Below are positions 1 to 13,302 of a DNA stretch of 64,000 nucleotides, piece by piece. Both the position numbers and the translations under genes were made by a program. Source of the stretch: Clostridia bacterium (GTDB lineage Bacteria; Bacillota; Peptococcia; DRI-13; UBA5745). The notes beneath the pieces were generated by a model that was given only the letters and a program-made list of their open reading frames with translations, had not been told where the DNA came from and searched no databases. The stretch covers positions 1 through 64,000 of the forward strand of contig JAHDPO010000031.1 of assembly GCA_018434325.1 (NCBI GenBank), given 5' to 3'. Positions within the stretch are counted from its first letter, which is position 1; the number at the start of each line of letters is the position of its first letter.

Positions 1-349
1 GTATTGCATCGAAAAGGATACGTGTTTGTGCCTGAATGCCGTCTTTGGCAGAGATCAGCAAGATAGCGCCATCCAACACATTCAATGAGCGCTCTACCTC
101 TGAATAAAAATCGATATGTCCAGGCGTATCAATCAAATTGACTTTGACATGGCCCCATTGATAAGATGCTATGGATGCCTGAATTGTAATGCCCCTTTGC
201 TTTTCAAGTGCCATAGAATCTGTAATCGTTGAACCCCTGTCAACACGCCCGGACTCAGTAATGGTACCGCTGGCATAGAGAATACTCTCTGTTAATGTTG
301 TTTTTCCAGCATCTACATGAGCCAAGATGCCGATATTCATTATTTTCAT
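1..349 (-). CDS. Tetracycline resistance ribosomal protection protein (TetM/TetB(P) family), 5' part only
   Basis: The reverse strand encodes about 116 N-terminal residues of an EF-G-like translational GTPase before the window edge cuts it. The G1 P-loop AHVDAGKTT, the switch region RGITIQ and the G3 motif DTPGH are all present. [18 protein letters not shown] matches the ribosomal-protection family, which dislodges tetracycline from the 30S subunit. By eye the sequence is not an exact match to TetM, TetO, TetW or TetQ as I remember them, so it may be a divergent class. The start ATG at 349 follows a GAGG ribosome-binding site. An attenuator and a leader peptide lie upstream. Confidence 0.88.
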
Positions 350-2541: not shown

Positions 2542-2916
2542 ATGGAACAGAAAAACGCTTGGATTTATTGCCGCATTGATGCGCCGGAGGATACACATGG
2601 CGCTTTGAAAGGCCAGTATGAGCAGTTGGAGCGCTATGCTTCACAAATGGGATTTGCCGTTGTCGGCTCCTCGCAGGATTTAGGCAGCGGCCTTGCGATG
2701 GATCGCCCCGGCCTGCTGGCTGTTCGGGAGGCTGTAAAGGATAAGGATACTCAGGTTTTGCTGGTGACATCCATCAGCCGGATCGGACGGGATGCCGCAG
2801 GGGTTATGGAATTCATCGGAGATCTGAGCAGTTGTGGTGTTCGTATCTTTTCTCCGATGGAGGGAGAAATCAGGCCGCAGCCTTTCAGCTTTTTGTCACA
2901 GTTCAATTTGAATTAG
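2542..2916 (+). CDS. Stand-alone serine-recombinase catalytic-like domain with Asp in place of the catalytic Ser
   Basis: This 124-residue protein resembles only the N-terminal resolvase domain. WIYCRIDAPEDT (residues 7-18) aligns with the usual YCRVSTEEQ, so the nucleophilic serine is Asp13. The later SRIGRDAAG motif (about 75-83) of the active-site arginine loop is kept. It lacks the DNA-binding recombinase domain and zinc ribbon. It should therefore be catalytically dead and may act as an accessory or regulatory partner of the full-length recombinases. It lies 13 nt after the mazF stop with its own AAGGAGG site. Confidence 0.7.
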   Translation: MEQKNAWIYCRIDAPEDTHGALKGQYEQLERYASQMGFAVVGSSQDLGSGLAMDRPGLLAVREAVKDKDTQVLLVTSISRIGRDAAGVMEFIGDLSSCGVRIFSPMEGEIRPQPFSFLSQFNLN

Positions 2917-2927
2917 GAGGGATCGCC

Positions 2928-3083
2928 ATGAAGAGTACAGCCCCTGTCAATGAAGTCCGCTATCTGATGGCGCATAACTTCCTGTCCTATCTTTTGGAGC
3001 ATGGGAAAATCACCTTAAAGGAATTCCATATCGCCGACCAATATGCAGTGGAAAAATACCGACCCAAGCTGCGGATTATTTAG
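2928..3083 (+). CDS. Small SHOCT-like protein of recombinase modules
   Basis: This 51-residue protein contains FLSYLLEHGKITLKEFHIA, which has the shape of short SHOCT-type oligomerisation motifs (a turn of hydrophobics followed by G-x-I-T-x-x-E). Proteins of this size and pattern often lie between serine-recombinase genes in Bacillota elements. ATG 2928 is preceded by TAGGAGGGATCGCC, a strong site, 11 nt after the previous stop. Its function is unknown. Confidence 0.6.
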   Translation: MKSTAPVNEVRYLMAHNFLSYLLEHGKITLKEFHIADQYAVEKYRPKLRII

Positions 3084-3174
3084 TGAATTTTGTGATAGCT
3101 TTCGGTGCATCTCTGTGGTAGTGTATGTGCTAATACCCACAGGGTATTGAACTCACACGAAAGGAGAATTCACA

Positions 3175-3339
3175 ATGAAAAAGCAAGAAACCATGAGGAT
3201 TGCTGTTTACTGCCGTGTGGCAACAGAGGCACAGCTGACAGACCAAAGCTCAGAGAAAGAGCAGATCAAGCGGCTGCAGCAATTCCTGAAAGAACAGGAG
3301 GTGCAGCCATGCCGCAGGTACAGGTTATTGAACCGGTAA
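3175..3339 (+). CDS. 54-residue serine-recombinase N-terminal fragment, catalytic Ser replaced by Ala
   Basis: ATG 3175 follows AAAGGAGAATTCACA and opens MKKQETMRIAVYCRVATEAQ. The resolvase motif YCRVS is YCRVA here, so Ala16 replaces the nucleophile. The frame stops after 54 residues, and its last 31 nt overlap the start of the next recombinase in a different frame. It could be a decayed gene 5' end, or a translated leader that couples translation to the recombinase behind it. The good ribosome-binding site argues that it is still translated. Confidence 0.5.
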   Translation: MKKQETMRIAVYCRVATEAQLTDQSSEKEQIKRLQQFLKEQEVQPCRRYRLLNR

Positions 3340-4883
3340 ACGCCATTTTTCAGTATGCCCCGCCCAAGCTGCGTGTCTGCGCCTATGCCAGAGTCAGCAG
3401 CGACTCCGCCGATCAGCTGAACTCCTTTTCGGTACAGATGGATCACTACCAGAACCTCATCGCCAAAAATGAGGAATGGGAGCTGGCGGATGTTTACGCC
3501 GATGAGGGCATCACCGGAACCCGGTCGGATAAGCGGGAGGAATTCCAGCGGATGCTGTCCGACTGCAGAAAGGGCAAAATCGACCTCATCCTCGTCAAAT
3601 CGGTCTCCCGGTTTGCACGAAATATCCACGACTGCCTCGCCGCTGTCCGGGAACTGAAAGCCCTCGGCATTGAGGTGGAATTTGAGGAAGATGGCCTGAA
3701 AACCGCCGATATGCACGATGAGATGATCATCGGCGCATTCAGCGCCATCGCACAGGAGGAATCCACCTCAATCTCCAACAATATGCGCTGGAGCTACGCC
3801 CGGAGAATGCAAAACGGCAGCTTCACCTGTTGCTGCGCCCCTTACGGCTACGACCTTATCGATGGCATCCTGATCCCCAACCCCAAGGAAGCCCCTGTGG
3901 TGCGCCGGATTTTCGCAGGCTATCTCTCCGGCAAAAGCATGGAGCAGATTGCAGATCAGCTAAATGCCGATGGCATCCCCTGCAAAAACGGAGAAGTAAA
4001 ATGGCTCTACACCGCCATCAGCTATATTCTTAAAAGTGAGCGCTACATCGGCGATGCCCTGCTGCAAAAATCCTACACCACCGACACGATGCCCTTCAGG
4101 ACGGTACGCAACAAGGGTGAGAAAGACCGCTATTACATTACCGGCTCCCATGAAGCAATGATCAGCCGCACTGTGTTTGAGCAGGCGCAGCAGCTCATGA
4201 AAGCCCGAAACGCCCTCTGTCCCCACAAAGGATACGGCAGGCAGTATGTGTTTTCTCAGAAAATCCGCTGCGGCAAATGCGGTACGAACTTCTCCCGCAG
4301 GGTGACCAATGGCAAGGTCTACTGGATGTGCCGCAGACATTTCCGCAGCAAGGAGCTGTGCGAAGTCAGGCAAATCCGTGAAGATGCCATCATACAGGCA
4401 TTTAACCGGATGTATAACAAGCTAAAACAGAACAGCGGCTACATTCTTACCCCGGCGCTTAGTCAGCTGACTGACCTCAAATCCAAAATCACCATGAGCG
4501 ATGGCAAGATCGGCTCCATCAACAAAGAAATAGCGGAACTCACCAAGCAGAGTCTGGTACTCAATCGTCTTCGGACGAAAGGTTACATGGACTCTGTTAT
4601 TTTTATGCAGAAAACCAATGAGATCAACCAACAGCTCGACTTGCTCAAGCGCAACCGCCGCAGGCTGATGGAAAGCGATGCGGATGACCAGATAATCTGC
4701 GACTGCCGCTTGTTGATCGGCATCATGGAACAGGGTGCGCCTTTCCTCGCTGACTTTGACGAAATGCTGTTTTACAGCATGGTGCATCACATCGTGGTCA
4801 CCGAGCAGGACAAGCTGCGGTTCCATTTGCTTGGCGGTTTTACATTAACCGAACCGCTTCCGGGGGAGGTGTTCGGACGATGA
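3309..4883 (+). CDS. Large serine recombinase (site-specific integrase/excisionase family), complete
   Basis: This 524-residue protein has the N-terminal resolvase domain with RVCAYARVSSDS (nucleophile Ser30) and the SRFARN arginine motif. A recombinase domain follows (GYLSGKSMEQIADQLNADGI, then SERYIGDALLQKS), then a zinc ribbon CGKCG...WMC...C from about residue 320, and a coiled-coil C-terminus. Large serine recombinases join attP and attB through a covalent seryl-DNA intermediate. ATG 3309 is chosen because AGGAGGTGCAGCC precedes it; an upstream in-frame extension has no family similarity. The stop overlaps the next gene's start by 4 nt. Confidence 0.9.
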   Translation: MPQVQVIEPVNAIFQYAPPKLRVCAYARVSSDSADQLNSFSVQMDHYQNLIAKNEEWELADVYADEGITGTRSDKREEFQRMLSDCRKGKIDLILVKSVSRFARNIHDCLAAVRELKALGIEVEFEEDGLKTADMHDEMIIGAFSAIAQEESTSISNNMRWSYARRMQNGSFTCCCAPYGYDLIDGILIPNPKEAPVVRRIFAGYLSGKSMEQIADQLNADGIPCKNGEVKWLYTAISYILKSERYIGDALLQKSYTTDTMPFRTVRNKGEKDRYYITGSHEAMISRTVFEQAQQLMKARNALCPHKGYGRQYVFSQKIRCGKCGTNFSRRVTNGKVYWMCRRHFRSKELCEVRQIREDAIIQAFNRMYNKLKQNSGYILTPALSQLTDLKSKITMSDGKIGSINKEIAELTKQSLVLNRLRTKGYMDSVIFMQKTNEINQQLDLLKRNRRRLMESDADDQIICDCRLLIGIMEQGAPFLADFDEMLFYSMVHHIVVTEQDKLRFHLLGGFTLTEPLPGEVFGR

Positions 4884-5743
4884 AAAAGAACCGCTATCTC
4901 CCCTTTGGCTACCACATCCAAAACGGTGTGCTGTGCATCCATAATGCCGAGGCCGCTGTGGTGCGCCAGACCTTTTTGGATTATCAAAGCGGACAGTCCT
5001 ACCGGTTGATTGCTGAAAAATTGACTGCCAAGAAAAACCCTTATTTAGAGAACCGTACCGACTGGAACAAACACATGGTCAAGCGGATGCTGGAAAACCC
5101 CCGATACTGCGGCGGCGATCATTTTCCAACGATTATCCCCTCCGACACGTTCGGGGCTGTAGCCGCCCTCATCGGGCAGAAAGGCCAAGGGGAACGTATC
5201 CCCGATGAACTGGATATCATCCGCAGAAAAGCGATTTGTGCGGCTTGTGGAGGCAAATACAAAAGGGATGGCAGAAGCAAGAAGTATGAAGCGTGGTGCT
5301 GCTCCGCCGAGGGGCGCATAACACCAAAGCGCATCTCCGACCAAATCCTGCTGGACAGCGTAACGGCGGCTTTGAATATCATCATCGCCGATCCGAGTCT
5401 GCTGGAGCCTTCCCCAACGCCACAGCATCCCCATTCTCTGGATGCCACCCGGACAGAGAATCAGATCAACCGGGAATTGGAAAAAAGCGAGGTGGACAGC
5501 GACTACATCAAGCTGCTGATTTTCAGCTGCGCCGCCGCAAAATACGATACTTGCCCTGACCGGGAGCCGGAATACTTAACCCGCCATTTGAGGTCGGTAT
5601 TTGAGCAGGAACAGCCGCTGGAGGCTTTTTCTCCCCGGCTTTTTGAGGCCACCATCAAACAGGTTCTCATCGAACCCGATGGCGGCCTAACCCTTCGCAT
5701 GAACAATCAAATACTCGTCCACTACGGGGCAGGAAAGGAGTAA
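4880..5743 (+). CDS. Serine-recombinase-like protein lacking the catalytic domain
   Basis: This 287-residue protein begins directly inside what would be the recombinase DNA-binding domain (LPFGYHIQNGVLCIHNAEAAVV), then has ENPRYCGGD, a zinc-binding CAACG...CC stretch and a C-terminal helical region. The resolvase domain with Ser and Arg active-site residues is entirely absent. It is tightly coupled (ATGA overlap) to the complete recombinase before it and followed 5 nt later by another. The conserved coupling suggests a functional DNA-binding partner or directionality factor rather than random decay, but this is inference. Confidence 0.75.
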   Translation: MKKNRYLPFGYHIQNGVLCIHNAEAAVVRQTFLDYQSGQSYRLIAEKLTAKKNPYLENRTDWNKHMVKRMLENPRYCGGDHFPTIIPSDTFGAVAALIGQKGQGERIPDELDIIRRKAICAACGGKYKRDGRSKKYEAWCCSAEGRITPKRISDQILLDSVTAALNIIIADPSLLEPSPTPQHPHSLDATRTENQINRELEKSEVDSDYIKLLIFSCAAAKYDTCPDREPEYLTRHLRSVFEQEQPLEAFSPRLFEATIKQVLIEPDGGLTLRMNNQILVHYGAGKE

Positions 5744-5748
5744 CCGAT

Positions 5749-7398
5749 ATGCAGACACAAACCATCGCCCCTATGCAGAAGCGGGTGGATCTGATTCCTG
5801 CCAATGTGCTGGTGGGCAAAGCCAGCACCAGAAAGAAAAAGCTGCGTGTGGCGGCCTACTGCCGGGTCAGCACCGAGCAGGAAGAACAACAGTCCAGCTA
5901 CGCTGCGCAGATTGCTTATTACACCGACAAAATATCCCAAAACAAGGATTGGGAGCTGGCCGGGATATTTGCTGACGAGGGCATCACCGGCACCAGCACC
6001 AAAAAGCGTGACGAGTTTCTCAAGCTCATGGCGCTCTGTGAAAAGGGCAAGATTGACATGGTGCTGACCAAATCGGTCTCCCGATTTTCGAGGAACACGC
6101 TGGATGCCATCACCTACATCCGCAAGCTCAAAGCCAAGGGCATCCCGATCATCTTTGAAAAAGAGGGCATCAACACCATGCAGATGGCCAGCGAAATGGC
6201 GCTGTGCTTTCTCAGCGGCTTTGCACAGGCCGAGAGCGAGTCCATCAGCCGCAATGTGACATGGGGCAAGCGCCAGAGCTTCAAGAACGGCAATGTGCCG
6301 TTTCAGTATAAACGCCTGCTGGGTTACGAAAAAGGTGAGGATGGCCAGCCCAAGGTTGTGCCGGAGGAAGCGGAAATGGTCAAGCGAATATTTCGCAGCT
6401 ATTATGCCGGAGCCAGCATCAGCAAAATCAAAAAGTCGCTGGAAGCGGACGGTATCCCATCTCCCACCGGCAAAGAGAAGTGGTCGCCGGGTGTTCTCCA
6501 GTATATGCTCCGAAATGAGCGCTACATCGGCGATGCCCTGCTGCAGAAAACCTATGTGGTGGATTGCATTACCAAGGAAACCCGAAAAAACAACGGTGAA
6601 ATCCCGCAGTATTATGTAACTGGAAACCATGAGCCGATTATTTCAAGGGATTTATTCAATCTGGTGCAGGAAGAAATCGCCCGGAGAGCCGGAAAACGCA
6701 AGGTAGCGCAAAAGGCTGTGAAAACAGAGAGAGGAAAATACAGCAGCAAGTATGCGCTGACCGAGCTTCTCAGCTGCGGTGACTGCGGAACTCAGTACCG
6801 CAGGGTCACGTGGGCGAGGGGCGGCAAGAAAAAGGTGGTCTGGCGGTGCATCAACCGCTTGGAATACGGCACGAAATACTGCAAGGAGTCCCCCACCCTT
6901 GAGGAAAGCAGACTTCACACTGCCATCGTGGCCGCCCTGAATTGTTTGGATAATGATAAACTGGATGTCATGGAAACCCTCCGAGCCGGTCTGCAGCTTG
7001 CCTTGGGTACGCAGGAGGGTGACAGCTTCAATGAGGGTGCCATCCAAAACCGCATTGCGGAACTGCAGAGCGTGATGATGGATTTGGTGGAACTCAGCTC
7101 CAAGTCCAGTGCCAGTGCAGATTATTTCGATGCCAAGTTTGAAGAAATCTCCACCGAGATCAAGTCGCTGCAGGAGCAGCTGGGCAAACACAAGCAGCAA
7201 ACACTGATCACGCAAAATACCAAGGCCAGAATAGGCGAACTGCTGGCCATCATGGAGCAGCTCGACCTGAGCGTTAAAGAGTATCGTGACGATGTGGTCA
7301 GGGCGATCATCGCCAAGGTGGTGGTTTTATCCGCCGACCGCATCCGGGTCACCTTTGATGGCGGTGTAGAAATGGAGATGGAACTGCCGGGTGAATGA
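5749..7398 (+). CDS. Large serine recombinase, second complete copy
   Basis: This 549-residue protein carries KLRVAAYCRVSTEQEEQQ with nucleophile Ser41, KSVSRFSRN, a recombinase domain with NERYIGDALLQKTY, a zinc ribbon (CGDCGTQYRR...WRC...C, about 344-380) and a long coiled coil (about 440-500). It differs clearly in sequence from the copy at 3309, so this is not a recent duplication. It is the last gene of the tandem block and is followed by an intrinsic terminator. Three tandem recombinase genes suggest a heteromeric machine in which each contributes to site recognition. Confidence 0.9.
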   Translation: MQTQTIAPMQKRVDLIPANVLVGKASTRKKKLRVAAYCRVSTEQEEQQSSYAAQIAYYTDKISQNKDWELAGIFADEGITGTSTKKRDEFLKLMALCEKGKIDMVLTKSVSRFSRNTLDAITYIRKLKAKGIPIIFEKEGINTMQMASEMALCFLSGFAQAESESISRNVTWGKRQSFKNGNVPFQYKRLLGYEKGEDGQPKVVPEEAEMVKRIFRSYYAGASISKIKKSLEADGIPSPTGKEKWSPGVLQYMLRNERYIGDALLQKTYVVDCITKETRKNNGEIPQYYVTGNHEPIISRDLFNLVQEEIARRAGKRKVAQKAVKTERGKYSSKYALTELLSCGDCGTQYRRVTWARGGKKKVVWRCINRLEYGTKYCKESPTLEESRLHTAIVAALNCLDNDKLDVMETLRAGLQLALGTQEGDSFNEGAIQNRIAELQSVMMDLVELSSKSSASADYFDAKFEEISTEIKSLQEQLGKHKQQTLITQNTKARIGELLAIMEQLDLSVKEYRDDVVRAIIAKVVVLSADRIRVTFDGGVEMEMELPGE

Positions 7399-7411
7399 AA
7401 ATGGCATTAGA

Positions 7412-7437
7412 AGCCGCCACAAAGCTGGCGGTTTTTC
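7412..7437 (+). terminator. Intrinsic terminator closing the recombinase block
   Basis: GCCGCCA and TGGCGG pair around a short loop and are followed by TTTTT, 14 nt after the last recombinase stop. Confidence 0.85.
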
Positions 7438-7581
7438 TACTTTGGTCGGAACTTTCGCTGTTTTTCAATTGGTTTCACCATAATACTGTGAATATTTCCA
7501 TATTTTACACTAAACAGATTGCTTTATTCGCTACTGCGATATATAATATATACAATCTTTATTTTGAAAAGGATAGTTTTA

Positions 7582-7761
7582 ATGGACTATATCACAGTGA
7601 AAGATGCCGTTGAAAAATGGGGAATCACACCACGCCGGATACAGGTGCTTTGTGCGCAGGGCAAAATACCGGGCGCTGTTCGGTTTGGGGTTGCTTGGGC
7701 GATACCTAAGGATGCAGTGAAGCCTAAGGACGGTCGATGTAATAAAAAAAAGCCAGAGTAG
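7582..7761 (+). CDS. Small helix-turn-helix protein (excisionase/MerR-like)
   Basis: This 59-residue protein, MDYITVKDAVEKWGITPRR followed by IQVLCAQGKIPGA, has the winged-helix pattern of small excisionase-like or helix-turn-helix 17 proteins. ATG 7582 is preferred over longer upstream frames because AAAAGGATAGTTTTA precedes it and the domain starts there. It stands between the recombinase terminator and the defence operon, so it might direct excision or control the genes after it. Its composition is closer to the recombinase side than to the AT-rich genes that follow. Confidence 0.65.
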   Translation: MDYITVKDAVEKWGITPRRIQVLCAQGKIPGAVRFGVAWAIPKDAVKPKDGRCNKKKPE

Positions 7762-7816
7762 ATTAATGTTATATAAAATTAATCATGTATAATATTTTTG
7801 TGGAGGGAGTGACATC

Positions 7817-9004
7817 ATGACTAGCCATCAAGCATCAGAACAAATGATAGGTTATCTTTATCAAGCTAGGTATGCATTGTACCTTTTATTAAATAATGAT
7901 GATGAGCAATCAGAAATTAGTATTGAAAAATTTGATGATGTAAGCTTTGGAAACGGTGATACTCCTGAAATCATGATTCAACTCAAGCATCATGTAAAGG
8001 CTTATGGCGATTTAAATAACGCAAGTACAGATATATGGAGAACATTAAAAGTTTGGATAGATGCTATTAGTAAGCATCCAGATTTATTGTCAAAAACAAA
8101 ATTTATGATAATAACTACTGCTTCGGCGCCAGAGGGCACAGCAGCATATTATTTGAAAACTGAATCACAAAAAAGGGATTCTCTTTTGGCTTACAGCATA
8201 TTAAAAAAAGTTGCGGAAGAATCTCAGAACAAAGGTCACCAAAGTTATTATAAAGCATTTACCAGTATGCCAGAATCGCAAATTCAGCAATTGTTAGATT
8301 GTATTTATGTAATTGACAAGAGCAGCAATATTGTCGATGTTGAATCTGATATAAAAAAAGCCATTAGATATAGTAGCCTTCCTCAATATATTGATAAAAT
8401 ATGTGAACGTTTGGAAGGTTGGTGGTACAAAAAAGCAATAGAAGCTTTATGCTCAGAAACACCAATATTCATATCTCAGAGTCAAGTGCGTTCACACATA
8501 GTTTCTATAGGATTGGAATATGCACCCGACAATTTGCCTATTGATGTGGACGAATCCGAAAACTTCGAATTAGATGAGTTGTCTCCAAATGATCAAATAT
8601 TTTATGAACAATTAAAGCTGATTTGCTTAGGAAGCAATAGACTGAGAATGGCAATTAGAGATTATTATCGTGCCTTCAAACAGCGAGCAAACTGGGTCAG
8701 GGAAGAATTGTTATATACAAATGAGCTGGACAAATATGAAAAAAAACTTATTGATGAATGGGAACATTCATTTTATGCAATGCAAGACGACTTGTCAGAT
8801 TATGGAGATCAAATTACAGAAAATACTAAAGTATTAAATGCAAAAAAACTCTATAAGGAAATTGAAGAAAAGGATATACGTATTAGAGATCGCTGCAGTG
8901 ATGCATTTGTAATGAGAGGCAGTTATCATATCTTAGCGAATCAGCTTAGAGTAGGATGGCATATTGATTTTTATGAGCGTTTGGCGCAATTATTAAAGAA
9001 CTGA
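7817..9004 (+). CDS. ABC-three-component (ABC-3C) system protein with nuclease-like N-terminus
   Basis: This 395-residue protein begins with GYLYQARYALYLLL (about 12-25), then SIEKFDDVSF (35-44) and IMIQLKHH (52-59). The D...QxK spacing resembles the PD-(D/E)xK nuclease fold of DUF4297/Mrr-like effectors. The C-terminal half is helical with RAFKQRANWVREELL and LIDEWEHSF, typical of the C-terminal modules of ABC-3C proteins. The family is known from comparative genomics of conflict systems, where the effector is thought to be switched on by the ATPase partner. GGAGGGAGTGACATC precedes the ATG. The middle component starts just after its stop. The nuclease assignment is from motif spacing only. 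Confidence 0.72.
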   Translation: MTSHQASEQMIGYLYQARYALYLLLNNDDEQSEISIEKFDDVSFGNGDTPEIMIQLKHHVKAYGDLNNASTDIWRTLKVWIDAISKHPDLLSKTKFMIITTASAPEGTAAYYLKTESQKRDSLLAYSILKKVAEESQNKGHQSYYKAFTSMPESQIQQLLDCIYVIDKSSNIVDVESDIKKAIRYSSLPQYIDKICERLEGWWYKKAIEALCSETPIFISQSQVRSHIVSIGLEYAPDNLPIDVDESENFELDELSPNDQIFYEQLKLICLGSNRLRMAIRDYYRAFKQRANWVREELLYTNELDKYEKKLIDEWEHSFYAMQDDLSDYGDQITENTKVLNAKKLYKEIEEKDIRIRDRCSDAFVMRGSYHILANQLRVGWHIDFYERLAQLLKN

Positions 9005-9014
9005 GGTGATTTAT

Positions 9015-9503
9015 TTGAGGAATTGGGGGCTTAGGGCAAAGGAAGTCGCTTATTTACTTAATCCGGCGTTTTGTGGTAGGTTATTATACAGTTGCATTAA
9101 AACATATAATGAGATAACAAAAAGAGCTTTTCCATTTCCTCTTATTTATCTGATTCTTCCATTGATACTTCATAAAAAAACTAGAGAGTGCATATCAAGT
9201 CGTACACAATTGATCATATGGCAACAACGATATCCTGAATTATTGATAGGTTTTGCAGAGAGAACAAAAGATATGGTTCAAATAACCAATGAGGCTATGG
9301 AGTTTTTGCTCCAAAGTGGTGTCGTACTGTTAACGAACGCTGCAGAGCTTGAAATATCTCAAACGAGCCGACCACTCAGTAAGACAAAATATGTTAATGA
9401 CGAAATCAGAGATTGCCTTAATAAAAGCGAACACGTTGCAAAATGGTTTGCTGCAGCAGGAAAAGTTGAAACAGTATATGTTGGTTTGGGGGTAAGACCA
9501 TGA
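9015..9503 (+). CDS. ABC-three-component system middle component (DUF6521-like)
   Basis: This protein of about 162 residues contains AYLLNPAFCGRLLYSCIKTY near its start, the hallmark of the middle component that links effector and ATPase in ABC-3C systems. The start is taken as TTG 9015 because GAGGTGA lies 5 nt before it; GTG 9006 is the alternative. A hydrophobic stretch, FPFPLIYLILPLIL, lies at about 40-53. Its stop overlaps the ATPase start by four bases, showing tight translational coupling. It is one of the most informative genes for calling the whole trio an ABC-3C system. Confidence 0.75.
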   Translation: MRNWGLRAKEVAYLLNPAFCGRLLYSCIKTYNEITKRAFPFPLIYLILPLILHKKTRECISSRTQLIIWQQRYPELLIGFAERTKDMVQITNEAMEFLLQSGVVLLTNAAELEISQTSRPLSKTKYVNDEIRDCLNKSEHVAKWFAAAGKVETVYVGLGVRP

Positions 9504-11416
9504 TGCAGATACGAGAATTAGTCATATACGGATTAAATGGACAAGTAAGGCATTTGCCATTTCAATTAGGAAAAGTGAACATAATATCCGGAAAATCGAA
9601 ATCCGGAAAATCGGCTGTAGGCGACATAATTGACTATTGCCTAGGCGGGAGTTCTTGTGATATTGCAGATGGCGTAATTAGAGAAAATGTGTCGTGGTAT
9701 GGATTGCTATTGCAGTTTGATAGCGAAAGAGTGTTTGTAGCTCGCCAAAATCCGCCTCCTGGTCAACAGTCGACGGGATTTTGTTATATTGAGGTCGGAG
9801 AAAAGATTGAAGTTCCTGAAAAATGTGATTTTGTTTCCAATACTAATGTTGCTGGATTGGAGGAGGCCTTAACTAAGAGATTAGGCATTTCTGAAAATCT
9901 AAATATACCGCCGGACGGACAAAGCCGTGATCCTTTAGCAGCTAATATTCGACATGCATTATACTACTGCTTTCAAAATCAAGATGAGGTAGCAGCAAAA
10001 ACTTTTTTATTTCATAAGCAGTCAGAGGATTTTATTACGCAAGCCATAAAAGACACTTTGCCATATTTTTTAGGTATAGTGAATGAGGAAGCGTTAGCCT
10101 TAGAAAATGAAAGAAGTATTCTAAAAAGAAGATTAGCAATTGAAAGACGTAGGCTAGAAGAAAATAGAATGCTTCAAGGAGGAGGCTTGCAAAGAGCCAT
10201 TTCGTTAATATCTGAAGCAAAGTATGTAGGTCTCGTATACGATAATATTGAAGTGGATTATGATAGTTACGATTCTGTCTATAAAGTTTTAAAAAACGTG
10301 AATGAATGGACTCCTGTAAATGCTGAAACGGTTGGTATGGATCGTTTAAGCTTTTTACAGTCAGAACTAAAAAAAGCCGAGGATGAATTAGAACAACTGA
10401 ATCAGGATATTAGTAATGCAAAAACATTTGCGGGAGAAACAAGCGGCTATGCAAATGAAGTCGAGCATCAAAAAATTAGGCTAAGCTCAATTGGTTTATT
10501 CGAGCAACTTGATTTTAGACCGGATCATTGCCCCTTATGTGCCAATGAACTAGAAACACCTTTACCAAATATCGACATGATAAGAACCGCTATAAAAAAC
10601 CTAGATGACAATATACAAAATGTTACCCGGGAAAAACCGAAATTACGAAAATATATTGACTCCCTTGAATCAGAGAGGGAAAAAACACGGCAAGACATTA
10701 TCCAAGTAAAGTCTGAAATTGATGGCATTTATACTCAGAATCAGGATGCCATTGCATTAAAAGATTTAAATTCTAGGCGTGCAAAAGTAGTTGGTAGAAT
10801 TAGTCTATGGCTGGAAAGCGTAGAGCAACATGATGACTCTACAGGTAAAGAAAAAGTCATAAAAAAGATTGAGGATAGAATATGTGAAATTAATGAAACG
10901 TTAGATAAAGACTCACTAGAAGATCGTAAGCAATCTGTATTATCACGAATATCTGTAGATATGACTGAATGGGCTAAGGAGCTGAACTTAGAACATTCGG
11001 ATAACCCATATCGTCTAGATATGAACAAAGTTACAGTTATTGTCGATAAAGCTGATCGCCCTGTTCCTTTAAAACAGCTCGGCAGTGGATCAAATTGGGT
11101 TGGGATACATCTAATAACTTACTTTGCGTTACATAAATATTTTATTACGCTTAAAAGGCCAGTGCCTAATTTTATATTTTTGGATCAACCTTCACAAGTA
11201 TATTTTCCATCTGAGTTAGATGAAAAAAATACAGATTGGAATATGGTTGGCACCTTATATAACTTTATATCCGATAGGGTATCGGAACTAAAACAAAAGC
11301 TTCAAGTCATAATAGTAGATCATGCTAACCTCAAAAATGAAAGTTTCCGTAACTCTGTTATTGAAGATTGGTGGAATGAAAATAACTTGATACCGGAAGA
11401 TTGGTACAAAAAATAG
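9500..11416 (+). CDS. Rad50/SMC-like ATPase, DUF3732 family, of the ABC-3C system
   Basis: This 638-residue protein has a P-loop GKSKSGKSA (31-39), long coiled-coil arms (about 200-320 and 360-500) and a CPLC motif at 344-347 at the arm tip like the Rad50 zinc hook. An ABC signature-like LGSGSNWVG (about 526) and a Walker-B-like FIFLDQPSQVYFPS (about 558-571) follow. The Gln after Asp in Walker B, where canonical ATPases have Glu, seems to be a DUF3732 family trait as I recall it. It likely senses DNA structure or invading DNA and activates the nuclease-like partner. It is the last gene of the AT-rich island. Confidence 0.8.
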   Translation: MMQIRELVIYGLNGQVRHLPFQLGKVNIISGKSKSGKSAVGDIIDYCLGGSSCDIADGVIRENVSWYGLLLQFDSERVFVARQNPPPGQQSTGFCYIEVGEKIEVPEKCDFVSNTNVAGLEEALTKRLGISENLNIPPDGQSRDPLAANIRHALYYCFQNQDEVAAKTFLFHKQSEDFITQAIKDTLPYFLGIVNEEALALENERSILKRRLAIERRRLEENRMLQGGGLQRAISLISEAKYVGLVYDNIEVDYDSYDSVYKVLKNVNEWTPVNAETVGMDRLSFLQSELKKAEDELEQLNQDISNAKTFAGETSGYANEVEHQKIRLSSIGLFEQLDFRPDHCPLCANELETPLPNIDMIRTAIKNLDDNIQNVTREKPKLRKYIDSLESEREKTRQDIIQVKSEIDGIYTQNQDAIALKDLNSRRAKVVGRISLWLESVEQHDDSTGKEKVIKKIEDRICEINETLDKDSLEDRKQSVLSRISVDMTEWAKELNLEHSDNPYRLDMNKVTVIVDKADRPVPLKQLGSGSNWVGIHLITYFALHKYFITLKRPVPNFIFLDQPSQVYFPSELDEKNTDWNMVGTLYNFISDRVSELKQKLQVIIVDHANLKNESFRNSVIEDWWNENNLIPEDWYKK

Positions 11417-11478
11417 ATTATTAACAATGCTTTTGGCCTGCATCTATTTTGTACTAACGACACATTTTTTTACCATAA

Positions 11479-11552
11479 GGGCAATTAGCTCAGCTGGTTA
11501 GAGTACATGCCTCACATGCATGGGGTCGGGGGTTCAAGTCCCTCATTGCCCA
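11479..11552 (+). tRNA. tRNA-Val (anticodon CAC)
   Basis: A 74-nt cloverleaf can be folded. The acceptor GGGCAAT pairs with ATTGCCC, the D-loop contains AGCTCAGCTGGTTAGAG, and the anticodon stem CATGC/GCATG encloses CTCACAT, so the anticodon is CAC. The T arm GGGGG-TTCAAGT-CCCTC is normal. CCA is not encoded. It lies 62 nt after the defence operon and marks the return to host-like composition. Confidence 0.92.
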
Positions 11553-11682
11553 CTAAGGAATGACTGGATAGCCAGTCATTTTTGTTGTTTAAAGGAGACT
11601 TGAACGGGCGGAGTAGGAAGCGGCAAAGCCGACCTATGGGGAGGATTTGCCCGGCCCGGCGTGATAGCGAACAACGAAGAAA

Positions 11683-11734
11683 GGCAATAAGGGAAGTGGT
11701 GAGCGGAGCAAGTCCCACATTGCCCATTAAGGAA
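11683..11734 (+). repeat. Imperfect copy of the tRNA-Val 3' end (candidate att remnant)
   Basis: Bases 11709-11734 repeat 11535-11560, the tRNA T-arm end plus 8 nt of flank, with 24 of 26 identical. GGCAAT at 11683-11688 can pair with ATTGCC at 11719-11724, so an acceptor-like stem survives, but no anticodon arm is present. Duplicated tRNA 3' ends are the classic footprint of integration at a tRNA gene. A degenerate tandem tRNA is the other option. Confidence 0.6.
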
Positions 11735-12345
11735 GAAAAACGCTGCCAGTCCCAATGCCATTAAGATTAGCAAAAAGTTGGCGAATTCATGGAGCATTGG
11801 CCGGCGCCGTGTCAAAAGAACAATGCAGCGAGATTCCCGCTACTGCTATTAGTGAACCCTTGGCGGCGGCAGCTTGTACAGAAATTGCGATTGTGGTCAA
11901 TTGGCTGGGGCATGGTGTACAAAAATTTCGTTTGTAGGTAAAATGCAGGGAAGGTAGTCCCTCACAACCGAAGAAATTGCACAAAACAGGCCTTGATTTG
12001 GCTAAAATAGGCCTCAGCTGCTGCTGCAATTCACCCACAAACGCAAAAATTGTACAGGCCGAGTCCGGAAAATGCATACAAACGAAAAAATTGTACATCT
12101 GCGCCCAACTATCTCAGGATAGCAGAACATCTGCGCCTCAGGATCTGCGGATAGCAGATTGAATCTGAAGGATTGAGTCCGTAGGACAGAATCGTCTAAG
12201 GATCACTGCTCCCCAGCCACAGGCAGTCACTGCCACCAGGGCACCAGGCGGTAACTACCCTGCCACTTTCCATTTTTTCATTTGACTCTTATCTAAATGA
12301 CATTGCCGCCAGTCCTTGATTGATCGGGATATTGGCGGTTCTTTA
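11735..12345. other. Gene-free region with three copies of a short repeat and a terminator
   Basis: I see no supported gene here. A motif close to ACAAACG(C/A)AAAAATTGTAC occurs twice directly (about 12037-12055 and 12074-12092) and once inverted with changes (about 11917-11936). A stem CCGCCA/TGGCGG at 12306-12338 followed by TTCTTTATTTT looks like an intrinsic terminator. CAGGCAGTCACTGCC-type small palindromes lie near 12220. The content could be remnants of mobile DNA next to the tRNA. Confidence 0.45.
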
Positions 12346-12450
12346 TTTTAAAATCACCTAACAGCGGGGTGCTAAATAACTGCTAAGTATGCTATGATAA
12401 TAATATTATGAATAAAAAATAAAGAATTCCGAAGAGGAGGCGCTTCAAAT

Positions 12451-13038
12451 ATGATCATATTCGATCTATTGATTACGTTTATATGTTTGGGGATCATTCT
12501 CCATCACATCATTAAACTTCTCCTCAGCGGAAAAAACAGAGCGGGATTGGTGATTATCGACTGCTTGAAAATAGTCTTTATTTTTTTTATTGTATATTTC
12601 TTAGTTTTTAGTTTTTTAATGCTTACCATATATGAGCTGTTCAACGATATGGGCTTTTTCTTCCCAATCCTGTCATTCAGCGGAGTGATCGCAATTTTTG
12701 TCGCCCACAAATACTACCGGTTAATTATGAACGCTGGGAAACCGACAGCTGGCAATCGGAGTTCACAGGCGACTAAAAAAGCATTTTCAGGAACTGCGGC
12801 AGCTTCCCCAAGGGAGAAAAGGCCTGCCGATGTGAAGAATACGGTAGCAGAAGCCCGAAAAGACGCTAATGCCGGGTTAAAGACAGGCCAGGCGGCGCCG
12901 GTGCAAAGACCTGTAAAGGTCAAGCACTGCAAGCACTGCGGCGCCAAGATTAACCTAAGCACCGGCATTTGCTCCGGCTGCAGCAAAAGAGCTATCGGCG
13001 TGAGCTTGATAAGGGGATTTAGGCGGCCGCAATTGTAA
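12451..13038 (+). CDS. Membrane protein with C-terminal zinc ribbon, function unknown
   Basis: This 195-residue protein has about three hydrophobic segments in its first 95 residues (LLITFICLGIILHHI, IVFIFFIVYFLVFSFLMLT, FFFPILSFSGVIAIFVA), then a polar linker rich in Ala and Lys. It ends with a short zinc ribbon CKHCGAKINLSTGICSGC (about 162-179). GAGGAGGCGCTTCAAAT precedes the ATG. It appears to be a single-gene unit. Zinc-ribbon tails of this kind are common in Bacillota membrane proteins of unknown role. Confidence 0.65.
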   Translation: MIIFDLLITFICLGIILHHIIKLLLSGKNRAGLVIIDCLKIVFIFFIVYFLVFSFLMLTIYELFNDMGFFFPILSFSGVIAIFVAHKYYRLIMNAGKPTAGNRSSQATKKAFSGTAAASPREKRPADVKNTVAEARKDANAGLKTGQAAPVQRPVKVKHCKHCGAKINLSTGICSGCSKRAIGVSLIRGFRRPQL

Positions 13039-13168
13039 TTAACCGCTTTCATCACCCATAATGGCAGAATATCCGGTTTGTGCAGGCAGTACGGTAGTGA
13101 CCCCAAATATGCAAAATTGCAAGTTGGGAGGAGGCCAATGAAAAAGTCGGTCAAGTCTCCTCCTGTGA

Positions 13169-13302
13169 GCAAAATTGCAGGTTTAAAGTGTGCTGTTTAA
13201 TTAAAATAGAGTCTATTCTCTTGCTGATGCACTAGATATAGCCAAATGTAGCCGCATGCAGCTCCCAAAATGATTTTGGGCACTTTAAACTTGCAATTTT
13301 GC
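13169..13302. repeat. Long inverted repeat, copy A of a dispersed family
   Basis: The arms are 13169-13193 and 13280-13302. They pair almost completely over 23 nt (core GTTTAAAGTGT, paired with the TTTAAAC core) around an 86-nt spacer. A second pair of the same arms lies at 43388-43410/43478-43500 with a different spacer. The gap 13039-13517 holds no gene that I can support. The shape suggests a small non-autonomous mobile element or a recurring mRNA hairpin. Confidence 0.6.

What the first reader, a model, noticed from the sequence alone, without database searches (positions are those of the whole stretch)
7817..11416. ABC-three-component type defence system next to a recombinase island
Three tightly coupled genes encode a protein with PD-(D/E)xK-like spacing (DDV...QLK), a NPAFC middle component and a DUF3732 Rad50-like ATPase with a CPLC hook. 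The trio is visibly more AT-rich than everything around it and sits between a serine-recombinase block and a tRNA. ABC-3C systems are predicted conflict systems with little experimental work that I know of, and this nuclease-headed version may be an unstudied subtype.
Basis: partly seen in the sequence, partly recalled or inferred. Interest (0 to 1): 0.72.

Follow-up and report, generated by a model that had tools for sequence, protein, structure and literature searches.

The report
Lamassu defence trio on mobile island
The three genes are an intact member of a known bacterial anti-virus system called Lamassu, carried as cargo at one end of a mobile DNA element whose relatives often carry other anti-virus systems in the same place.

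Summary
In detail: 7817-11416 holds three tightly coupled, AT-rich genes (GC 0.354; window 0.507). They are LmuA, LmuC and LmuB of a Cap4-type (type II) Lamassu, a studied branch of ABC-3C with solved structures of all three subunits.

What is new is the setting. The trio lies inside the recombinase element, not beside it: recombinases, HTH gene and trio are colinear in Muricomes (86%), and 3.2 kb is 99.94% identical in Butyricicoccus, breaking at 11464, 14 bases before tRNA-Val. Relatives of the last recombinase often have other defence systems there: strong matches at 10 of 17 loci scanned, against 0 of 10 control regions. A 25-base motif ends the element after the cargo in several cases, but it also occurs alone elsewhere, so its meaning is open.

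The parts
7817..9004 (+). lmuA: Cap4-like PD-(D/E)xK nuclease domain (E37, D40, D41, Q55, K57) plus ABC-3C C-terminal domain CTD7
   Evidence: Pfam CTD7 3e-41; Cap4_nuclease only 0.064, below threshold; PADLOC LmuA 5e-62; K57 aligns with the lysine that is alanine in two PDB constructs; AF2 pLDDT 91, Foldseek to LmuA chains 8e-17
9006..9503 (+). lmuC: ABC-3C middle component 3
   Evidence: Pfam MC3 2.7e-54; PADLOC LmuC 4.8e-15; PDB LmuC chain 9hqu_D 3.8e-07
9500..11416 (+). lmuB: Rad50/SMC-like ATPase, DUF3732; Walker A GKSKSGKS at 31, hook CPLC at 344, LGSGSN at 527, Walker B DQPSQ at 562
   Evidence: Pfam DUF3732 2.4e-48; PADLOC LmuB 3e-144; PDB 9hqu_A 2e-53; motif positions
7519..7761 (+). 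small HTH (HTH_17, excisionase-like) gene of the element
   Evidence: Pfam HTH_17 1.7e-06; within the stretches colinear with Muricomes L009 and (to 7736) L114
5749..7398 (+). large serine recombinase (last of the cluster)
   Evidence: NCBIfam CcrB-like 8e-34, below its curated cut-off
4880..5743 (+). recombinase-domain protein
   Evidence: Pfam Recombinase 7.2e-12, the only family at E up to 1e-4
3105..4883 (+). large serine recombinase (ORF as listed; the true start is probably further in)
   Evidence: NCBIfam CcrB-like 1e-34, matching from residue 89, below its curated cut-off
2542..2916 (+). short resolvase-domain ORF
   Evidence: NCBIfam YneB-like 1.6e-12, below cut-off
11439..11464 (+). 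right-end motif and right border of the mobile element
   Evidence: identity with Butyricicoccus L008 stops at 11464; same pattern at the ends of related islands
11479..11553 (+). tRNA-Val (cac), host gene just outside the element
   Evidence: ARAGORN; the homologous site in congener G004 aligns from 11464 on

Best explanation
An intact type II (Cap4-effector) Lamassu system, carried as right-end cargo of a serine-recombinase mobile element. Most likely mechanism: LmuB dimers with LmuC hold LmuA in an inactive complex. LmuB, hooked like Rad50, binds DNA ends or hairpins of an invading phage or plasmid. Its Walker B glutamine makes ATP hydrolysis slow, so engagement acts as a near one-way switch. 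LmuA is released, assembles into a tetramer and cuts DNA without distinguishing self, which blocks the invader and usually stops the cell (abortive infection). Shown here: composition, order, motifs, fold, near-identical copies in other hosts and the right border of the element. Inferred from solved relatives and the literature: complex, sensing, release, tetramer formation, cutting. Inferred from the sequence comparisons: the element spreads the module between hosts by site-specific recombination.
For: Family models; solved homologues for each subunit, with PDB titles naming sequestration, DNA-bound and LmuA-tetramer states; five putative active-site residues invariant in 37 of 37 aligned LmuA; K57 equals the lysine that is alanine in two PDB constructs; order A-C-B in 84 of 85 loci, DQP[ST]Q in 82 of 85, and, by a pattern that may match anywhere in the frame, CPxC in 81 of 85; E-to-Q and abortive infection described for Lamassu (PMC10586767, passages); hairpin and DNA-end sensing (PMC12904381, passages). 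Mobility: 99.94% identity over 8217-11464 with Butyricicoccus, ending sharply, and 86% colinearity over 3296-11415 with Muricomes; LmuB in 1 of 46 genomes held for the host's class, that one being the host's own.
Against: No activity was tested. LmuA is only 14-25% identical to the solved LmuA chains in the fold search, with query TM-scores of 0.25-0.54, so domain arrangement or trigger may differ. Pfam Cap4_nuclease is below threshold (E 0.064). The solved 9ny5/9uxl LmuB lacks the CPxC hook, so the role of the hook is not fixed. The left end of the element is off the contig.
Confidence: 0.9

Rival explanations
1. The trio is a host-side island that only happens to lie between an unrelated recombinase element and a tRNA gene.
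For: The base composition changes sharply between the recombinases and the trio.
Against: Recombinases, HTH gene and trio are colinear in Muricomes at 86% identity. A second Muricomes copy keeps recombinases and HTH and has DRT3 genes in place of the trio. The border shared with Butyricicoccus lies after the trio, not before it.
Confidence: 0.05
2. The trio protects the mobile element itself, mainly against competing plasmids and elements, rather than the host against phages.
For: It is element cargo. Vibrio Lamassu acts on plasmids as well as phages (PMC10586767, passages).
Against: Other cargo found in the slot matches models of anti-phage systems; the two roles are not exclusive.
Confidence: 0.3
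3. A decaying or silent copy without present function.
For: In Butyricicoccus LmuA is cut at about codon 134 near a contig end with insertion-sequence-like repeats (by eye).
Against: In the window all three frames are open and carry the family motifs. In Muricomes LmuA and LmuB are open at 92% and 95% identity.
Confidence: 0.08

Closest known systems
Type II Lamassu LmuACB (Salmonella enterica 9hqu/9hqx/9hr5; Vibrio cholerae 9uxl; 9nxx/9ny5 set)
   Same: All three subunits, DUF3732 ATPase with DQPSQ, Cap4-like nuclease lysine, small middle component
   Different: Low identity (LmuA 14-25% in the fold search); CPLC hook here, CPMC in 9hqu, no such motif in the 9ny5/9uxl chains; carried on a serine-recombinase element
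ABC-3C systems (CTD7 + MC3 + DUF3732)
   Same: Pfam members of exactly these families
   Different: Nothing seen that sets it apart
Staphylococcal cassette chromosome (SCC) elements with Ccr serine recombinases
   Same: CcrA/B/C-like recombinases next to exchangeable cargo; end motif beyond the cargo; two ends in tandem in Muricomes (comparison with SCC recalled)
   Different: Recombinases score 120 bits or less against cut-offs of 700-900; inserted near a tRNA gene or at other sites; conjugation genes upstream in the Muricomes relative
Defence hotspots of phages, satellites and other mobile elements (P2/P4, PMC9122126, listing and start of abstract only)
   Same: Variable defence cargo at a fixed place of a mobile element
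   Different: Here the place is between the last serine recombinase and the right end of a serine-recombinase element

Membership tests
Lamassu type II / ABC-3C | LmuB: SMC/Rad50-like ATPase with DUF3732 | tested here: met
Lamassu type II / ABC-3C | LmuC middle component | tested here: met
   MC3 2.7e-54; LmuC 4.8e-15; PDB LmuC chains, best 3.8e-07
Lamassu type II / ABC-3C | LmuA with effector domain and ABC-3C C-terminal domain | tested here: met
   CTD7 3e-41; LmuA 5e-62; fold match to LmuA chains
Lamassu type II / ABC-3C | Cap4-type PD-(D/E)xK active site | tested here: met
   E37, D40, D41, Q55, K57 invariant in 37 of 37; K57 aligned with K-to-A in solved constructs; Pfam Cap4 model itself below threshold
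Lamassu type II / ABC-3C | Operon order A-C-B | tested here: met
Lamassu type II / ABC-3C | Walker B glutamate replaced by glutamine | tested here: met
   DQPSQ at 562; general for LmuB per PMC10586767
Lamassu type II / ABC-3C | Anti-phage or anti-plasmid activity | not testable with these tools
   needs a bench assay
Lamassu type II / ABC-3C | LmuACB complex, LmuA tetramer on activation | not testable with these tools
   known for homologues, from PDB titles only
Integrative and conjugative element | Relaxase, coupling protein, VirB4/TraG-type ATPase in the element | tested here: inconclusive
   Found upstream in Muricomes (MobL, T4SS-DNA_transf, TraG-type) and partly in Butyricicoccus (TrbL, TraG-type); the window's contig starts inside the element
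SCC element | Ccr recombinase above curated cut-off | tested here: not met
   best 120 bits against 900

The most novel reading that the evidence does not exclude
The trio is one cassette of a family of SCC-like defence islands in Clostridia and relatives: a serine-recombinase cluster with a small HTH gene at one side, an exchangeable defence module in the middle and a conserved 25-base right end (GCATCTWTTTTKWMCTAAYNAYACA) at the other, sometimes set down in tRNA arrays. The end motif, used as a search string, would then lead to further defence modules.
Probability: 0.4. Interest if true: 0.55.

Novelty: new member of a known kind. Interest (0 to 1): 0.33.

Why it matters
The trio adds a hook-bearing Lamassu from a mobile element that is found almost unchanged in different hosts. 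The larger point is the slot: if the place between the last recombinase and the right-end motif is a regular docking site for immune modules, recombinase and motif together give a simple way to find defence systems and to see how they are exchanged among gut Clostridia.

Tried and rejected
Unstudied subtype: rejected, solved structures exist for all three subunits. E-to-Q Walker B as a novelty: rejected, already in print (PMC10586767). Insertion inside the tRNA-Val gene: not supported, the border lies 14 bases before it. SCC membership: recombinase scores far below cut-off. Viral contigs: a search with LmuB gave 3 pattern matches and no relative. LmuB is rare around the host: in 1 of 60 relatives and 1 of 46 genomes of its class, the host itself both times.

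The end motif as a clean marker: only partly upheld. The pattern was written from the sites of the window, Butyricicoccus, Muricomes and the G131/G213 pair, so their exact matches are by construction. In 398 genomes of the phylum it gave 15 matches in 12 genomes with up to 2 mismatches, 12 of them in 9 genomes not used to build it, against 3 genomes for the backward control. Of the 12 new sites, only G020 (recombinase remnant, ATPase-like pair, motif) and weakly G014:C6 (remnants about 12.5 kb away) had a recombinase on the cargo side. Two exact copies in G406 had none within about 14 kb on either side; G134 and G014:C7 had none in the stretches read. These lone copies are unexplained.

Defence slot, selection told: loci were taken in rank order of the recombinase hits down to E 1.5e-132, plus L114; I had seen the ORFs before the scans. 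Rule: the first three ORFs of at least 190 aa downstream (two where only two existed); shorter ORFs were passed over. It named 53 proteins in 18 loci; 50 proteins from 17 loci were scanned. Not scanned: L122 (3 proteins); L157 (99.97% copy of L156); L158, L117 and L121 (contig ends); G237 (contig end, not fetched); L169-L173 (43-45% identity, fetched; by eye mostly no defence genes). Strong matches: L114, L154, L156, L118, L159, L160, L164, L163, L165, L120. Partial: L155 (203-aa piece of a 466-position model), L166 (ABC domain), L168 (N-terminal domain). None: L161, L162, L119, L167. Control: 36 proteins from 18 arbitrary regions were listed; 20 from 10 regions of 9 of the genomes were scanned, two per region against up to three per slot locus. 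0 strong, 2 partial. Counting only the first two ORFs of each slot locus still leaves 10 of 17. Fisher p 0.0023 for strong, 0.0066 for any match; the loci are related, so these are rough. Second control, about 4.5-15 kb upstream of the recombinases: 38 proteins listed from 10 regions, 36 from 9 scanned (L194 dropped). One member each matched a type III methyltransferase (1.7e-226), a type III restriction enzyme (1.8e-185; by size both probably in L195) and PDC-M57B (1.2e-71); one or two members each matched pVip, capP, DrmD, SduA and type II methyltransferase models more weakly. This output is a tally and does not name members. Some of these recombinases belong to prophages (tail genes upstream in L198, L199, L201, by eye), so the family is not one kind of element.

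Conservation counts: the LmuA alignment used 36 of 68 relatives of suitable length. The CPxC and DD...QxK counts are patterns that may match anywhere; in L006 the aligned hook position reads WPFC, so 81 of 85 is an upper bound for the hook, and the L006 LmuA match looks like chance.
Full report
WHAT IS THERE. Three genes on the + strand, 7817-9004, 9006-9503 and 9500-11416, are separated by one base and then overlap by four. The trio has GC 0.354; none of 604 sliding 3.6-kb windows is lower, and the lowest outside it is 0.452. A serine-recombinase cluster lies upstream (2542-7398), a small HTH gene at 7519-7761, and tRNA-Val at 11479-11553.

WHAT THE GENES ARE. Gene 1 has the ABC-3C domain CTD7 (3e-41) and matches PADLOC LmuA over nearly its whole length (5e-62). 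Gene 2 is middle component MC3 (2.7e-54; PADLOC LmuC 4.8e-15). Gene 3 is DUF3732 (2.4e-48; PADLOC LmuB 3e-144). Pfam's Cap4 nuclease model reaches only E 0.064 in gene 1, but residues E37, D40, D41, Q55 and K57 are invariant in an alignment of 37 LmuA. K57 aligns with the lysine that is alanine in two PDB constructs. An AF2 model of LmuA (37 sequences, pLDDT 91) finds LmuA chains first (E 8e-17), then Avs3, Cap4 and DUF4297/HerA-type proteins; identities are 14-25% and query TM-scores 0.25-0.54. LmuB carries Walker A, a CPLC hook, LGSGSN and DQPSQ.

FAMILY. With five plasmid loci added, 84 of 85 have the order A-C-B on one strand, two of them with A and C in one frame; the remaining one is cut off by its contig start. 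DQP[ST]Q is found in 82 of 85 (of the others one reads DQPSE and two show no DQP in the frame used). By simple pattern CPxC is found in 81 of 85 and DD(V/I/L)...QxK in 81 of 85; both are upper bounds. The trio therefore has the sequence features of type II Lamassu. The solved set includes LmuACB in a "nuclease sequestration state", LmuACB on DNA and a DNA-bound LmuA tetramer (titles). The Walker B glutamine and its likely effect, slow hydrolysis and irreversible activation, are in a 2023 review (PMC10586767, passages). Hairpin and DNA-end sensing are summarised in PMC12904381 (passages). The structural paper it cites is not held.

HOW IT MOST LIKELY WORKS. Complex formation, sensing of DNA ends or hairpins, release of LmuA, tetramer formation and DNA cutting with abortive infection are all inferred from relatives. 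Shown here are parts, motifs, fold and order only.

WHERE IT SITS. LmuB is identical over all 638 residues in Butyricicoccus sp. Marseille-Q5471 and 95% identical in Muricomes intestini. DNA identity with the Butyricicoccus contig is 99.94% over window 8217-11464 and stops there. After that base the two genomes differ, so 11464 is taken as the right border of a mobile element, 14 bases before tRNA-Val. In Muricomes the recombinases, HTH gene and trio are colinear (3296-11415, 86%). In a congener of the host, G004, the homologous tRNA-Val follows what reads by eye as tRNA-Asp, and similarity to the window begins exactly at the border; the element thus seems to sit in a tRNA spacer. Upstream of the Muricomes block, on the same contig, lie a MobL relaxase, a coupling protein and a TraG-type ATPase, so that copy appears to be part of an integrative and conjugative element. 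For the window this cannot be seen, because its contig starts inside the element.

A DEFENCE SLOT. A second Muricomes copy of the recombinases and HTH gene is followed by DRT3a and DRT3b genes instead of the trio. I therefore looked downstream of other relatives of the last recombinase (39 of 398 genomes of the phylum have one at E up to 1e-100; further ones). Strong PADLOC matches stood there at 10 of 17 loci scanned: DRT3, Hma, Qat (three loci), Gabija, Tmn, AbiE, Iet, type IIG restriction with GajA, HEC-05, and Druantia DruE; some loci hold two systems. Three more had partial matches and four none. Of 10 arbitrary regions, none had a strong and two a partial match; Fisher p 0.0023 for strong matches. 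Controls had two proteins per region and slots up to three, but counting two per slot leaves 10 of 17. Upstream of the recombinases a tally of 36 proteins showed three strong members (two of type III restriction-modification, one PDC-M57B). The loci are not independent, I had seen the ORFs first, and relatives at 43-45% identity that I left unscanned look poorer by eye, so this is a lead, not proof. In a pair of genomes of different families a 16.9-kb stretch with recombinases and Qat is 99.7% identical.

AN END MOTIF. The right borders share a 25-base pattern, built from the window, Butyricicoccus, Muricomes (two tandem sites and a second copy) and the Qat pair; in 13 genomes searched it occurs only at these seven sites, none for the backward control, none in 8 genomes. 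The other islands with defence cargo (for example G154, G009, G128) lack it. In the Qat genome G131 it lies 8 bases before tRNA-Thr. In G020 it follows a recombinase remnant and an ATPase-like pair just after a tRNA-Leu. Over 398 genomes it gave 15 matches in 12 genomes, 12 of them new, against 3 control genomes. Several stand alone without a recombinase near, which I cannot explain; they may be remnants.

KNOWN OR NEW. The trio is a new member of a known kind. That mobile elements carry defence systems in hotspots is known (for example PMC9122126 and PMC10121019, seen as listings with the start of the abstract). My searches for this particular slot listed no paper whose title or abstract start describes it, but the library is incomplete and only one listed paper was opened (PMC11706625, passages), which concerns other islands.

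Noticed in passing
L009 12928-13403 (Muricomes): Two copies of the right-end motif 450 bases apart, as if two cassettes had been set down in tandem; a 629-aa metallophosphoesterase-like gene (by eye) follows lmuB before the first end.
   Followed up: partly
L008 1-126 (Butyricicoccus): LmuA is interrupted at about codon 134 by sequence with insertion-sequence-like repeats (by eye) at the contig end, although the rest is 99.94% identical to the window.
   Followed up: no
L063 and L071: LmuA and LmuC match the same open frame, which suggests a natural LmuA-LmuC fusion in two Anaerolineae.
   Followed up: no
window 1-349, - strand; L113 4532-5773: The window's contig appears to start inside a tetracycline-resistance-type ribosomal protection gene (by eye), which in Butyricicoccus lies in the conjugation region.
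   Followed up: no
L113 5425-6508: In Butyricicoccus window bases 1-424 are joined directly to 5856-6518, an internal deletion of most of the recombinase cluster.
   Followed up: partly
window 11732-12308: Interspersed repeats: the stretch 11479-13172 gives 52 matches in the host genome and 47 in a congener, most of them to this part.
   Followed up: no
G406:C1:2585303 and 2638490; G134:C59:577; G014:C7:4270: Exact (G014: one mismatch) copies of the end motif without any recombinase in the stretches read.
   Followed up: partly
G000:C23:16947-20972 (L117): The host holds a second, diverged recombinase cluster (48% identity for the last gene), with a stop codon in that gene.
   Followed up: no
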